A stretch of DNA of 55,347 nucleotides. Source: Bacteroidaceae bacterium (GTDB lineage: Bacteria; Bacteroidota; Bacteroidia; Bacteroidales; Bacteroidaceae). The translations under genes were made by a program, and so were the position numbers. The DNA lies in assembly GCA_017556585.1 (NCBI GenBank), contig JAFYMP010000090.1, positions 1 to 55,347 on the forward strand, given 5' to 3'. The notes beneath the pieces were generated by a model, which was not told the DNA's origin, made no database searches, and worked only from the letters and a program-made list of their open reading frames with translations. Shown here piece after piece: positions 35,915-39,272 of the stretch; positions within the stretch are counted from its first letter, which is position 1, and every line of letters begins with the position of its first letter.

Positions 35915-36814
35915 ATGAATAAGATTAAGGCAGCCATAGTAGGCTATGGAAACATTGGTCAGTATGTTTTAGAGGCACTCCAGAGCGCACCCGATTTTGA
36001 GATTGTAGGTATAGTACGCAGAAACGGAGATGCCGATAAACCTGCAGAACTGAACGAATATAAAGTAGTTAAGGATATACAGGATTTGCCAAAACCGGAT
36101 GTGGCAATACTTGCAGTTCCCAGCCGTAGCGCAGAAAAGTATGCAGCTCAGATATTGCCTTTAGGCATCAATACAGTAGATAGCTTTGATATTCACTCTT
36201 TGATAGTGGAGACCCGTTCCAGAATAGACAAAATAGCAAAGGAATGTGGTCAGGTGGCAGTTATATCGGCAGGATGGGATCCGGGAAGCGACTCTATAGT
36301 ACGTGCTCTTATGCAGAGTATGGCCCCAAAAGGAATAAGCTATACCAATTTTGGTCCGGGTATGTCTATGGGACACACCGTAGCCGTAAAAGCTATTGAT
36401 GGCGTAAAGAATGCACTTTCTATGACCATACCTGTAGGAACAGGAATACATCGCAGAATGGTTTATATAGAGCTGTTAGATGGCTATAAGTTTGAAGACG
36501 TTGCTGCAGCAATCAAAGCAGACCCATATTTTGTGAATGATGAAACTCACGTTATGCAGGTAGAGAGTGTAGATGAACTGAAAGATATGGGACATGGAGT
36601 AGAGCTAACCCGCAAAGGTGTTTCGGGCAAAACTCAAAATCAGCTCTTCTCATTTAATATGAAGATAAACAATCCTGCGCTTACTGCTCAGGTTCTGGTA
36701 AATGTAGCAAGAGCATCTATGCTTCAGAAACCGGGATGCTACACTATGATAGAGATTCCTGTCATTGATATGCTCCCCGGCAATCGCGAAGAACTCATTG
36801 CCCATTTAGTATAA
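35915..36814 (+). CDS. ddh: meso-Diaminopimelate D-dehydrogenase
   Basis: 299 residues with an N-terminal Rossmann motif (IVGYGNIGQYVLEAL) and the family blocks AGWDPGSDSIVRAL, NFGPGMSMGHTVAVKAI and ETHVMQVE. It catalyses the NADPH-dependent reductive amination of tetrahydrodipicolinate to meso-diaminopimelate, a one-step branch to lysine and peptidoglycan. It is a single gene with a TAATTTCG-like promoter box about 30 bp upstream. It is followed by the 5' copy of a 20-bp direct repeat. Confidence 0.95.
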   Translation: MNKIKAAIVGYGNIGQYVLEALQSAPDFEIVGIVRRNGDADKPAELNEYKVVKDIQDLPKPDVAILAVPSRSAEKYAAQILPLGINTVDSFDIHSLIVETRSRIDKIAKECGQVAVISAGWDPGSDSIVRALMQSMAPKGISYTNFGPGMSMGHTVAVKAIDGVKNALSMTIPVGTGIHRRMVYIELLDGYKFEDVAAAIKADPYFVNDETHVMQVESVDELKDMGHGVELTRKGVSGKTQNQLFSFNMKINNPALTAQVLVNVARASMLQKPGCYTMIEIPVIDMLPGNREELIAHLV

Positions 36815-36839
36815 CTGCCATATTGTAACATATTATTGC

Positions 36840-36859
36840 TACGGCAGGTCTGGAGACCT
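36840..36859 (+). repeat. 20-bp direct repeat, left copy
   Basis: TACGGCAGGTCTGGAGACCT is identical to 38139-38158. Each copy contains the inverted repeat AGGTCT-GG-AGACCT. Together they bracket the Abi/ncRNA cassette. They may be boundary scars of an inserted module or a dispersed REP-like palindrome. Confidence 0.75.
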
Positions 36860-36936
36860 ATATAAATGCGTCACAAAATAGGACATCTTCATGTCGTTGG
36901 GGCGACAGCTCGGGGATTTCTGGGGGCGAAGGTAAT

Positions 36937-37024
36937 AAAAAAGTCGCCGAGATTTCTCTCAGCGACCAAATTCTCCTTTTTATAGTGCAGCGTGAAGCGA
37001 TAGTAGACATCACGGGCACTTTGC
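36937..37024 (-). ncRNA. Putative AbiF-type small RNA next to the Abi_2 gene
   Basis: On the minus strand a -7-like box TACCTTCG (37037-37030) is followed by two helices. The first is an extended hairpin: AGTGC/GCACT closing pairs (37016-37020 with 36984-36988) and inner GTGA/TCAC pairs (37010-37013 with 36992-36995). The second is a stem of ten pairs with a GAAA tetraloop (36943-36966; GTCGC-T-GAGA with TCTC-G-GCGAC) followed by six T, an intrinsic terminator. It starts about 48 bp after the abi stop codon on the same strand. I recall conserved RNAs associated with abiF/abi_2 genes (the abiF RNA motif), and size, context and fold agree, but no covariance search was possible. Confidence 0.65.
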
Positions 37025-37071
37025 GAATGCGAAGGTAGAAATTATTTTCCAATAATTATATAATAATCATG

Positions 37072-37956
37072 TTAAAATGTTTCAAATCCAGAAACTTTTG
37101 CCAAGATTTCTCTAACTTTTTTGTTCTTTACTTTCTTGAGAAGCTCTTCAATTTCGGCGCACATTTCTTGATGCCTATGGATTGATATCTGCTTGATGAC
37201 GTACTGGATTACTGCAATTATACCTATGATGTTAGAGTTATTCGGTTGTGTCAGATTTCCGGCTGGACCATGTGGTAATCTCTGGGGCAGTTTTGTGTCA
37301 AACAGGACATTGCCATGAGCGCACATATTTCTTGCTTTACGGATGGTTTCAAAATAGCTCTGGAAGATACCTATTTTTGCAACGCCGTAATGAAGGGCTA
37401 TATCAGCTTGCACATCAGGCTTTTTGAGATTGTTGTAAAGAGACTGAATATTCCCAATTGTCATCAGCTCTATTGTCTTCCATGCTGGAGCATATCGATC
37501 CATCGGATACTTCTTGTGATGTTCTATGATGGTCGGATTGTCTTGAAATGCTTTCGTTCCGTACACAGTTGTGTAGAAACTATTTACATAACTTGGTTTC
37601 ATTACAGCGTGGCTGATGAACCAACACGGCTTTGTCTTGTATAGGTTTGACACATGATATGTGATATATGTCCTGATGTTTACCTCTATGCGGGTGAGGT
37701 ATTTCATCAGCAACCTTCTAAGGTCACAGTCGAAATAGTACAGATCTAATGCGTCAAGGAAGTTTGTTCCATCCTTGTAAATGTGATCTCTGTTCTTTTT
37801 GCTCGGATATTTCTTTTCAAATGGGAACAGATATGCTCCAAATCGATAGTATCCTATGTCAAGAAGCACTTCTTTAGCCTTCTTCTCATCATTGATGACC
37901 AGTCCTCTGTTTTTCAATTTTTCAACCTGCTCATCTAAAGTCGTTGCATATTTCAT
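37072..37956 (-). CDS. Abi_2 (AbiD/AbiF)-family HEPN abortive-infection protein
   Basis: About 294 residues from ATG 37956. Residues 1-40 (TLDEQVEKLKNRGLVI and LLDIGYYRFGAYLFPF) are the typical Abi_2 opening. Two R-X4-6-H motifs mark the HEPN RNase fold: R95-TYITY-H101 and the canonical RNxxxH at Arg209-His214 (RNMCAH). Such proteins are phage-defence or toxin RNases. The ATG at 37956 (or 37968) is preferred to 38001, because the promoter box TATATTTG (37979-37986, minus) lies between. A structured RNA lies just downstream on the same strand, which fits the RNA-antitoxin arrangement proposed for AbiF (established knowledge recalled, not verified here). Confidence 0.88.
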   Translation of the reverse strand: MKYATTLDEQVEKLKNRGLVINDEKKAKEVLLDIGYYRFGAYLFPFEKKYPSKKNRDHIYKDGTNFLDALDLYYFDCDLRRLLMKYLTRIEVNIRTYITYHVSNLYKTKPCWFISHAVMKPSYVNSFYTTVYGTKAFQDNPTIIEHHKKYPMDRYAPAWKTIELMTIGNIQSLYNNLKKPDVQADIALHYGVAKIGIFQSYFETIRKARNMCAHGNVLFDTKLPQRLPHGPAGNLTQPNNSNIIGIIAVIQYVIKQISIHRHQEMCAEIEELLKKVKNKKVREILAKVSGFETF

Positions 37957-37978
37957 AGATATCTTCATTTTGTTCGAG

Positions 37979-37986
37979 CAAATATA
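37979..37986 (-). promoter_or_regulatory. -7 promoter box of the abi gene
   Basis: Minus-strand TATATTTG. Transcription from it would begin about 6 bp downstream, giving a leader of only 5-17 nt before the candidate ATGs (37968 or 37956), which argues against the ATG at 38001. Confidence 0.55.
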
Positions 37987-38002
37987 GTGGTTTTGTGGCA
38001 AT

Positions 38003-38131
38003 TTAGTTATTATTATCTTCCATAAATTGCAGGATCCAGTCGGTGAGGTCGATGTGGGCTGCTTTTTCTCTGGTGGATTTGCCTTGGGATTTGAGCTCGT
38101 GGACGTTGCGGTGGGTGGAGGTGATTCCTTT
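38003..38131 (-). pseudogene. GC-rich relic of an unidentified gene tail
   Basis: Minus-strand open stretch of about 43 codons between stops, without a start. It reads GITSTHRNVHELKSQGKSTR, then EKAAHIDLTDWILQFMED, and is protein-like. Base composition is about half G+C with C-ending codons, clearly unlike its AT-rich neighbours, so it is probably transferred DNA. It sits between the abi promoter and the right copy of the 20-bp repeat. The family is not recognised. Confidence 0.4.
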
Positions 38132-38138
38132 TTTTAGT

Positions 38139-38158
38139 TACGGCAGGTCTGGAGACCT
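38139..38158 (+). repeat. 20-bp direct repeat, right copy
   Basis: TACGGCAGGTCTGGAGACCT, identical to 36840-36859. It follows a T-rich stretch (T7 at 38129-38135) and lies 10 bp before the end of the MORN gene. Confidence 0.75.
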
Positions 38159-38168
38159 GACGGGACAG

Positions 38169-39272
38169 TTAGAATTGGATGCCGATACCGGCGTAGAGAC
38201 CTTCTGCTTTATTCAGACCTACTATAAGATTGTAAAAGACACTGTCAGTGAAACCTATGTTGTATCTGATAAATGTACCATAGTTCATAAATACACTGTC
38301 AAATCTGGTTTTGTAGTATCGCTTGTTGCGTTCAAAAGGACCCGATTCAGAAGCCAAACAGTTTTTGTATGCAGTGTTTATGCCTAAACCTAAATTCACG
38401 CCAAACTGAACGAAATCATCCAAAAACCACCCAAAGTTAAAAAGTACATTGTAACCATTATATACCCCCTCTGTAAACTCCTCGTCAGGAAATTCATCCC
38501 AACCAATTACTGTGGGATATTCATCGTCTTCAACAACCACCCCATCTTTTCCTCTGTAAGGATCGGTAGGTATTCCAAAAGTTCTTTTGCCTATATTGGC
38601 ACTAAGGGTTACACCCCAAAACGTATATCCGTTACCTGCCGATATATCCAGTACCAACATATCTTTGCTACCTATGGATATACCCATACAGAGCACATCG
38701 TATTCGGGCACTTCGTAATAACTGTAGTCTTGAGAAGCCTGGGCGGCAGCAATAGAATCGGCCATCTCCTGGTTCTTGACTTTGCCTATGTATATGTCAT
38801 TTTCAAAGTATCCTTTGTAGAGAGTAGTATCTTGTTTTGACAATAGTACACCTGCGCCATGTCGCATATCGTCTTTCCATTCACCGGCATAATAACCTCC
38901 ATCTTCGTACATAAGAGTACCTACGCCATTGAACATGCCGTTTTCCCAATGTCCATTGTATTCAGCTCCATTTGCATATTTATACACACCTTCGCCGCTC
39001 ATTTTGTGGTCTTTGAAAGAACCGCTATAGTAGTCGCCATCAGGGAAACGCAAGTTACCCTTGCCGTTCCACAGACCATCTTTCCATTCACCGGAATAGA
39101 TAGTTCCGTCGCTATATTTCATTGTACCTTGTCCGTTGAACAGAGAATCTGCAATACCTCCTACATACCAAGAACCGTCATCGAATCTTAACGTATCCGA
39201 TTCCGTGTTTTGGGCTACTGCATTGCTTATGCAGAATAACAGAACCAAAAGTATGGTAAATGTTCTCCTCAT
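38169..39272 (-). CDS. MORN-repeat exported protein with C-terminal beta domain
   Basis: About 367 residues with signal peptide (TFTILLVLLFCISNAVAQ). At least five MORN repeats (residues about 30-150) follow the pattern YxGxWKDGxxxGxGxxxxxDG: YSGEWKDGLWNGKGNLRF, YSGSFKDHKMSGEGVYKY, YNGHWENGMFNGVGTLMY and YAGEWKDDMRHGAGVLL. The C-terminal part (from about 200) has alternating strands ending YAGIGIQF, suggesting an outer-membrane-associated beta domain. Start 39272 is chosen by the signal peptide and by the TACTTTTG box at 39299-39306 (minus). Function unknown; MORN repeats bind lipids or proteins. Confidence 0.82.
   Translation of the reverse strand: MRRTFTILLVLLFCISNAVAQNTESDTLRFDDGSWYVGGIADSLFNGQGTMKYSDGTIYSGEWKDGLWNGKGNLRFPDGDYYSGSFKDHKMSGEGVYKYANGAEYNGHWENGMFNGVGTLMYEDGGYYAGEWKDDMRHGAGVLLSKQDTTLYKGYFENDIYIGKVKNQEMADSIAAAQASQDYSYYEVPEYDVLCMGISIGSKDMLVLDISAGNGYTFWGVTLSANIGKRTFGIPTDPYRGKDGVVVEDDEYPTVIGWDEFPDEEFTEGVYNGYNVLFNFGWFLDDFVQFGVNLGLGINTAYKNCLASESGPFERNKRYYKTRFDSVFMNYGTFIRYNIGFTDSVFYNLIVGLNKAEGLYAGIGIQF

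What the first reader, a model, noticed from the sequence alone, without database searches (positions are those of the whole stretch)
36937..37956. Abi_2 HEPN protein paired with a terminator-ended structured RNA
Seen: a HEPN protein with two R-X4-6-H motifs (R95-H101 and RNMCAH) and, about 48 bp downstream on the same strand, an 88-nt region with promoter-like box, two helices (one closed by a GAAA tetraloop) and a T6 terminator. Recalled knowledge: conserved abiF RNAs accompany abi_2 genes and have been proposed as RNA antitoxins and as relatives of the ancestors of Cas13. Inference: this locus is an RNA-regulated HEPN toxin or defence module whose RNA has its own promoter.
Basis: partly seen in the sequence, partly recalled or inferred. 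Interest (0 to 1): 0.75.

Follow-up and report, generated by a model that had tools for sequence, protein, structure and literature searches.

The report
Toxin gene with new partner RNA
A bacterial gene for a likely RNA-cutting defence toxin sits next to a small folded RNA, of a kind not in the RNA family catalogue, that also accompanies its close relatives and probably keeps the toxin switched off.

Summary
Window 37072-37956 (-) encodes an Abi_2/AbiD HEPN protein (E 8e-43). Downstream lies a small RNA gene with promoter box, two-helix hairpin and terminator. Rfam's abiF RNA (RF03085) does not match it, though that model matches two other places in the same assembly. The RNA is still conserved. 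An alignment of relatives covaries: 26 cells with double changes against 10 in shuffles; 85% of cells paired against 18-50% when slid. All 52 close-clade Abi_2 loci with readable flanks carry it; some are near-copies. In 294 other genomes of the order, its 4 matches at E 0.001 all lie beside a close-clade gene. The clade is one branch (100/99); PbAbiF (8VZ6), solved with its RNA, lies outside it. Best reading: an RNA antitoxin for an AbiF-like RNase toxin, with RNA shape and gene order unlike the published cases I could read. Gene and RNA share an insertion of about 1.3 kb flanked by 20-nt repeats. Binding and neutralisation are inferred. The Cell 2025 AbiF paper was not held, so earlier description is possible.

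The parts
37072..37956 (-). Abi_2 / AbiD-like HEPN protein, 294 aa (an in-frame TTG start at 38001 would give 309 aa)
37315..37332 (-). Codons of RNMCAH (R209-H214), the HEPN RNase motif
   Evidence: R, N, H invariant in 39 of 39 close-clade and 22 of 22 other rows; R209, N210, H214 invariant in A5
37030..37037 (-). Promoter-like box TACCTTCG before the RNA (one mismatch to TAnnTTTG; consensus recalled)
   Evidence: exact box in 36 of 39 loci, within one mismatch in 39 of 39
36937..37025 (-). Predicted small RNA (start estimated, not mapped)
37016..37020 (-). Helix P1, 5' strand AGUGC
37010..37014 (-). Helix P2, 5' strand CGUGA
36991..36995 (-). Helix P2, 3' strand UCACG
36984..36988 (-). Helix P1, 3' strand GCACU
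36967..36983 (-). Linker AUAAAAAGGAGAAUUUG with a conserved A-rich part
   Evidence: A columns invariant or nearly so in A1 and A4
36943..36966 (-). Terminator hairpin, 10 bp, GAAA loop
36937..36942 (-). T6 run of the terminator
36840..36859 (+). 20-nt direct repeat bounding the module, low side
   Evidence: only two copies in the assembly
38139..38158 (+). 20-nt direct repeat bounding the module, high side
   Evidence: empty site in relative L121

Best explanation
A two-part RNA-protein toxin-antitoxin and phage-defence module. The Abi_2/AbiD protein is a HEPN ribonuclease toxin. The small RNA, made from its own promoter just downstream and ended by its own terminator, folds into a two-helix hairpin that binds the protein, probably over the dimer interface that holds the RNxxxH site, and keeps it inactive. 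If the RNA supply falls, for example when a phage shuts off or degrades host transcripts, the free toxin cuts RNA and halts the cell. Shown here: protein family and motif, RNA structure by covariation, conserved promoter box, constant pairing of RNA and gene in one clade, arrival as a unit. Inferred from the studied AbiF systems: transcription, binding, neutralisation, RNase activity and release on infection.
For: Protein: Abi_2 E 8e-43, AbiD E 6e-55, PbAbiF 8VZ6 E 2e-24; RNxxxH invariant. RNA: 85.5% of cells paired and 26 double-change cells against 10.1 in shuffles on an alignment not fitted to the structure, same with 41 sequences. Own promoter box in 36 of 39 exactly. RNA at 31 of 31 family, 5 of 5 order, 3 of 3 phylum, 2 of 2 genome contigs and 11 of 11 readable viral-contig loci. 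RNA and protein distances correlate, r 0.64, p 0.0001, n 33. Insertion as a unit. For related systems: RNA antitoxin binding AbiF in C. difficile (PMC12373285, abstract and sections 7, 11, part of 13) and PbAbiF-AbiFr (PMC12737573, passages).
Against: No transcript, binding or toxicity data. Helix P1 is nearly invariant and says little; on the 17-sequence alignment the number of further pair types is not above shuffles (134 of 500), and on the 41-sequence one the number of pairs with double changes is not (76 of 500); RNAalifold finds 8 of the 11 pairs with a weak covariation term of -0.6. Of 51 RNA matches in the family search 24 lie away from a listed close-clade gene; of the 30 fetched, 8 have no Abi_2 within 1.5 kb. 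In the studied C. difficile case the RNA is upstream and also attenuates the gene; here 37 of 39 are downstream.
Confidence: 0.78

Rival explanations
1. The RNA is a diverged abiF RNA: the same RNA, bound in the same way, drifted beyond the reach of the Rfam model and moved to the other side of the gene. It would still be an antitoxin.
For: Same plan: outer helix, short 5' joint, inner hairpin, longer 3' joint (RF03085 structure; A1 structure). The proteins are homologous. Some members have the RNA upstream (L022, L091, L115, L116, L119).
Against: RF03085 is not listed at E 10 for the window region or 18 close-clade loci. Helix lengths, conserved letters, joint lengths and usual gene order differ.
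Confidence: 0.5
2. The RNA is only the 3' end and terminator of the abi gene, perhaps an mRNA stability element, with no antitoxin role.
For: It usually starts within about 20-90 nt of the stop codon and always ends in a terminator among the 38 parsed loci. At L045, L059, L062 and L067 it follows another gene closely.
Against: Own promoter box in 39 of 39 within one mismatch; upstream of the gene in 5 loci; the covarying part lies before the terminator; two copies with a box each in L092 and L093.
Confidence: 0.1
3. The RNA is a guide, sensor or activator for the protein rather than an inhibitor, a step towards RNA-guided Cas13.
For: AbiD/F proteins are proposed relatives of Cas13 ancestors (PMC12165695, passages). 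The loops vary between clades.
Against: No spacer-like stretch was seen between the conserved parts: the core is 47-51 nt in all 17 first loci. Both studied AbiF RNAs inhibit.
Confidence: 0.07

Closest known systems
PbAbiF with ncRNA AbiFr (PDB 8VZ6; Zilberzwige-Tal et al., Cell 2025, known to me only through PMC12373285 and PMC12737573)
   Same: Homologous HEPN protein (E 2e-24) with a small RNA partner
   Different: About 30% identity class, other side of a 100/99 branch, next to loci with RF03085. Its RNA letters were not available to compare.
AbiF_Cd with RCd22 in C. difficile (PMC12373285)
   Same: Abi_2 protein, RNA with hairpins and terminator, RNA as antitoxin
   Different: RCd22 is upstream, carries two RF03085 motifs and is co-transcribed with the gene; here the RNA is downstream with its own box and has no RF03085 motif
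abiF RNA, Rfam RF03085
   Same: Two stacked helices with an asymmetric joint, found beside abi_2 genes
   Different: No match to this RNA in any scan
ToxIN-like type III toxin-antitoxin systems (recalled)
   Same: RNA antitoxin held by an RNase toxin
   Different: Unrelated toxin fold; tandem-repeat RNA upstream of the toxin (recalled)

Membership tests
Abi_2 / AbiD-AbiF proteins | Match to the family model over its cut-off | tested here: met
   Pfam PF07751 147.3 bits against a cut-off of 25.6, positions 1-184 of 184; PADLOC AbiD 184.8 bits
HEPN ribonucleases | RNxxxH active-site motif | tested here: met
   RNMCAH, R, N and H in 61 of 61 aligned rows
HEPN ribonucleases | RNase activity | not testable with these tools
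   needs the purified protein
abiF RNA RF03085 | Match to the Rfam model | tested here: not met
   no match at gathering nor in lists at E 10; the model does match L006 and L007 in the same assembly
Type III toxin-antitoxin (AbiF group) | Structured RNA coupled to the toxin gene | tested here: met
   52 of 52 readable close-clade loci
Type III toxin-antitoxin (AbiF group) | RNA upstream of the toxin with a terminator between, as for RCd22 | tested here: not met
   downstream here and in 37 of 39 loci; upstream in L022 and L091 and in 3 viral-contig loci
Type III toxin-antitoxin (AbiF group) | RNA binds and neutralises the toxin | not testable with these tools
   needs co-expression and binding tests
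The RNA family proposed here (models R1, R2) | Two covarying helices at fixed places beside close-clade Abi_2 genes | tested here: met

The most novel reading that the evidence does not exclude
One clade of AbiF-like HEPN toxins uses a second kind of RNA antitoxin, separate from abiF RNA, encoded downstream from its own promoter. In many members the RNA carries two look-alike hairpin loops, the second being the terminator itself, so that one RNA could hold both halves of the toxin dimer. Solitary copies of the RNA beside other defence genes would then be relics, or protection against such toxins.
Probability: 0.4. Interest if true: 0.72.

Novelty: new variant of a known kind. Interest (0 to 1): 0.58.

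Why it matters
AbiF-like toxins with RNA partners are proposed ancestors of Cas13 (PMC12165695, passages). A clade with a different RNA, in another gene order, gives an independent sample of how RNA can hold a HEPN RNase and a direct test of which RNA features matter. The covariance model also makes modules findable that RF03085 misses.

Tried and rejected
Rfam at gathering and at E 10 gave nothing at the RNA but matches below their cut-offs. The first viral scan, with the single protein, found no relative; the scan with the alignment found 13. A shared loop in the window's own RNA was looked for and is not there. Anticodon mimicry by the heptaloops was considered from the letters alone and dropped. 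The RNA of 8VZ6 could not be read: the library searched holds protein chains only. Phage and plasmid records hold only relatives under 60% identity, best 35%; their flanks were not examined.

The label 'sister group' was set by protein similarity, not by RNA. Of its 17 loci given to Rfam, 5 reach the RF03085 cut-off; most others show upstream hairpins of another look by eye only, and L028 and L100 gave no RF03085 match at E 0.5. L039 was left out of the tree because its start was miscalled. Rows dropped before counts: L022 was not parsed (38 of 39 parsed, two of them misparsed and corrected by hand); one search left out 4 near-copies of 38, one search left out 5 of 38. Fifteen of the 51 RNA matches, mostly weaker, were neither fetched nor beside a listed protein and were not inspected.

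Full report
What is there. On the minus strand 37072-37956 encodes a 294-aa Abi_2 protein; the PADLOC match is AbiD and the one PDB sequence matched is 8VZ6, 'Abi family protein', E 2e-24. In that printed alignment RNSCCH falls at residues 210-215; PMC12373285 names R210 and H215 for PbAbiF and PMC12737573 gives 8VZ6 as PbAbiF. From 37037 down to 36937 follow a promoter-like box, a two-helix hairpin, an A-rich linker and a terminator. The stretch folds better than 200 of 200 shuffles.

Not the catalogued abiF RNA. No Rfam family reaches its cut-off in the window, and the lists at E 10 for 36750-38170 and for 18 close-clade loci do not contain RF03085. The model works in this assembly: it hits two other places at 58.5 and 45.3 bits, on contigs where the Pfam search finds no Abi_2 (assembly 82.8% complete).

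A conserved RNA of its own. Relatives of the protein in the family (58 of 151 genomes at E 1e-10) fall into a close group of 40-51% identity over nearly the full length and a remote one of about 30%. Next to the close group a shared RNA is plain to the eye: AGUGC, an inner hairpin, GCACU, then UAUAAAAAGGA and a terminator. A MAFFT alignment of 17 (15 distinct), not fitted to the structure, gives 85.5% of cells paired (17.6-50.0% when slid) and 26 cells changed on both sides (shuffles 10.1, sd 2.9, 0 of 500 as high). I named the structure after reading these sequences, which favours it. All six pairs of helix 2 show double changes; helix 1 is nearly invariant. Against: further pair types are not above shuffles (134 of 500), and RNAalifold predicts 8 pairs with a covariation term of only -0.6. 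With 41 sequences, fitted to the model, 85.2% of cells pair and 67 cells are doubly changed against 25.1, but the number of pairs with double changes is matched in 76 of 500 shuffles.

Association tested both ways. Family, 301 genomes: 31 protein matches at E 1e-40, 27 with an R1 match beside them at E 0.05. The other 4 (L077, L080, L082, L083) show the RNA on reading and score 26.9, 20.1, 25.0 and 17.7 bits with R1; L083, not used for R2, scores 20.8 with it. Fifteen of the 31 had been used to build R1. Order, 294 genomes besides the own one: R2 matches 4 genomes at E 0.001, the protein 5 at E 1e-40, and the 4 are among the 5 with the RNA within about 310 nt of the protein match; the fifth, L091, has it upstream at 28.3 bits. 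By my arithmetic that overlap has a chance of about 2e-8 for independent genomes, but the four are two pairs of near-identical modules. Phylum, 295 others: R2 matches none at E 0.001. The protein matches 8 at E 1e-30: 3 of 37-42% identity (L094-L096) carry weaker copies at 23.8-26.2 bits, downstream; 5 of 33-38% over part of the query (L097-L101) carry hairpins of another look upstream (by eye). Viral contigs: 13 relatives, 2 cut off at or inside the gene, 11 of 11 others with the RNA, 8 downstream and 3 upstream. With L003 and L004 this makes 52 of 52 readable loci, some near-copies.

Anatomy across relatives. An exact TAnnTTTG box lies before the RNA in 36 of 39 loci and within one mismatch in 39 (shuffles 0.9 and 11); that this is the Bacteroidota promoter box is recalled. 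The RNA is downstream in 37 of 39; L022 and L091, upstream, are sisters (100/98). L092 and L093 have two different copies in a row, each with a box. RNA and protein distances correlate (r 0.64, p 0.0001, n 33). In many relatives the terminator loop repeats letters of the inner hairpin loop (CUUUGUC in both for L019): over 34 loci the longest shared stretch averages 3.97 against 3.28 after re-pairing (6 of 20,000 as high), over the 19 with loops of six or more 4.89 against 3.95 (17 of 20,000). The 15 with shorter loops, the window's among them, show nothing (7,899 of 20,000). The pattern suggests, without showing it, that the terminator hairpin doubles as a second binding site in those members. 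I noticed the pattern before testing it on the same loci.

Tree and motif. In a tree of 61 proteins the 39 close-clade rows are one side of a branch (100/99; 0 of 500 shuffles as low). PbAbiF pairs with L033 (100/95), which has RF03085. One exception to the split by RNA: L068, in the sister group, has a new-type RNA at 39.4 bits downstream, after another hairpin. RNxxxH is invariant; the next residue is G in 34 of 39 close-clade rows and H in 21 of 22 others.

Movement. The module is bounded by 20-nt direct repeats, the only two copies in the 2.09-Mb assembly within one mismatch. In relative G891 (L121) the two neighbouring stretches align 48 nt apart against 1355 here. So gene and RNA arrived together with little else; the direction, gain here and not loss there, is inferred from the repeats.

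Stand-alone copies. Of the 30 RNA loci fetched in the family search, 21 have a close-clade gene, 1 a sister-group gene (L068) and 8 no Abi_2 within 1.5 kb. L043 keeps 81% DNA identity with L018 over 233 bp including the last codons of the lost gene, and L051 shares 94% over 485 bp with L053 without its abi gene: likely relics. Others closely follow a GNAT gene (L045), a Gp49/HTH pair (L059) and an endonuclease-domain gene (L062).

Mechanism and novelty. By homology to the two studied AbiF systems (PMC12373285: abstract, passages, sections 7 and 11 and part 1 of the discussion; PMC12737573: passages) the RNA most likely neutralises the toxin by binding. Nothing here tests that. The Cell 2025 paper is not held, and PMC12804078 (passages) names two AbiF-related covariance models from it, used beside Rfam, which may include this RNA. 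Searches of the held library that listed no description of it: (listings; passages of PMC8040213 have no 'Abi').

Noticed in passing
window 36840-36859 and 38139-38158: A 20-nt direct repeat found twice in the whole assembly bounds the module; a relative (L121) has the empty site.
   Followed up: partly
L006 1501-1537 and L007 1501-1537 (own assembly): RF03085 abiF RNAs with no Abi_2 gene found on their contigs; the one in L006 lies about 440 nt from an HsdM-like gene on the other strand.
   Followed up: partly
L043, L045, L046, L051, L059, L060, L062, L067: New-type RNAs without Abi_2 within 1.5 kb, several beside toxin-antitoxin or restriction genes.
   Followed up: partly
L092 and L093, downstream of the gene: Two different copies of the RNA in a row, each with its own promoter box, in near-identical modules of two different families.
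   Followed up: no
L026, L028, L030, L034, L036, L097-L101, upstream of the gene: Upstream hairpins around CGCUUCCCG or similar, possibly a third RNA look; L028 and L100 gave no RF03085 match at E 0.5.
   Followed up: no
L068 about 1350-1550: A sister-group Abi_2 gene followed by an unidentified hairpin with a promoter-like box and then a new-type RNA.
   Followed up: no
L002, end of G000:C76: A second Abi_2 gene of the own assembly, cut by the contig end, with a sister-group-like hairpin upstream.
   Followed up: no
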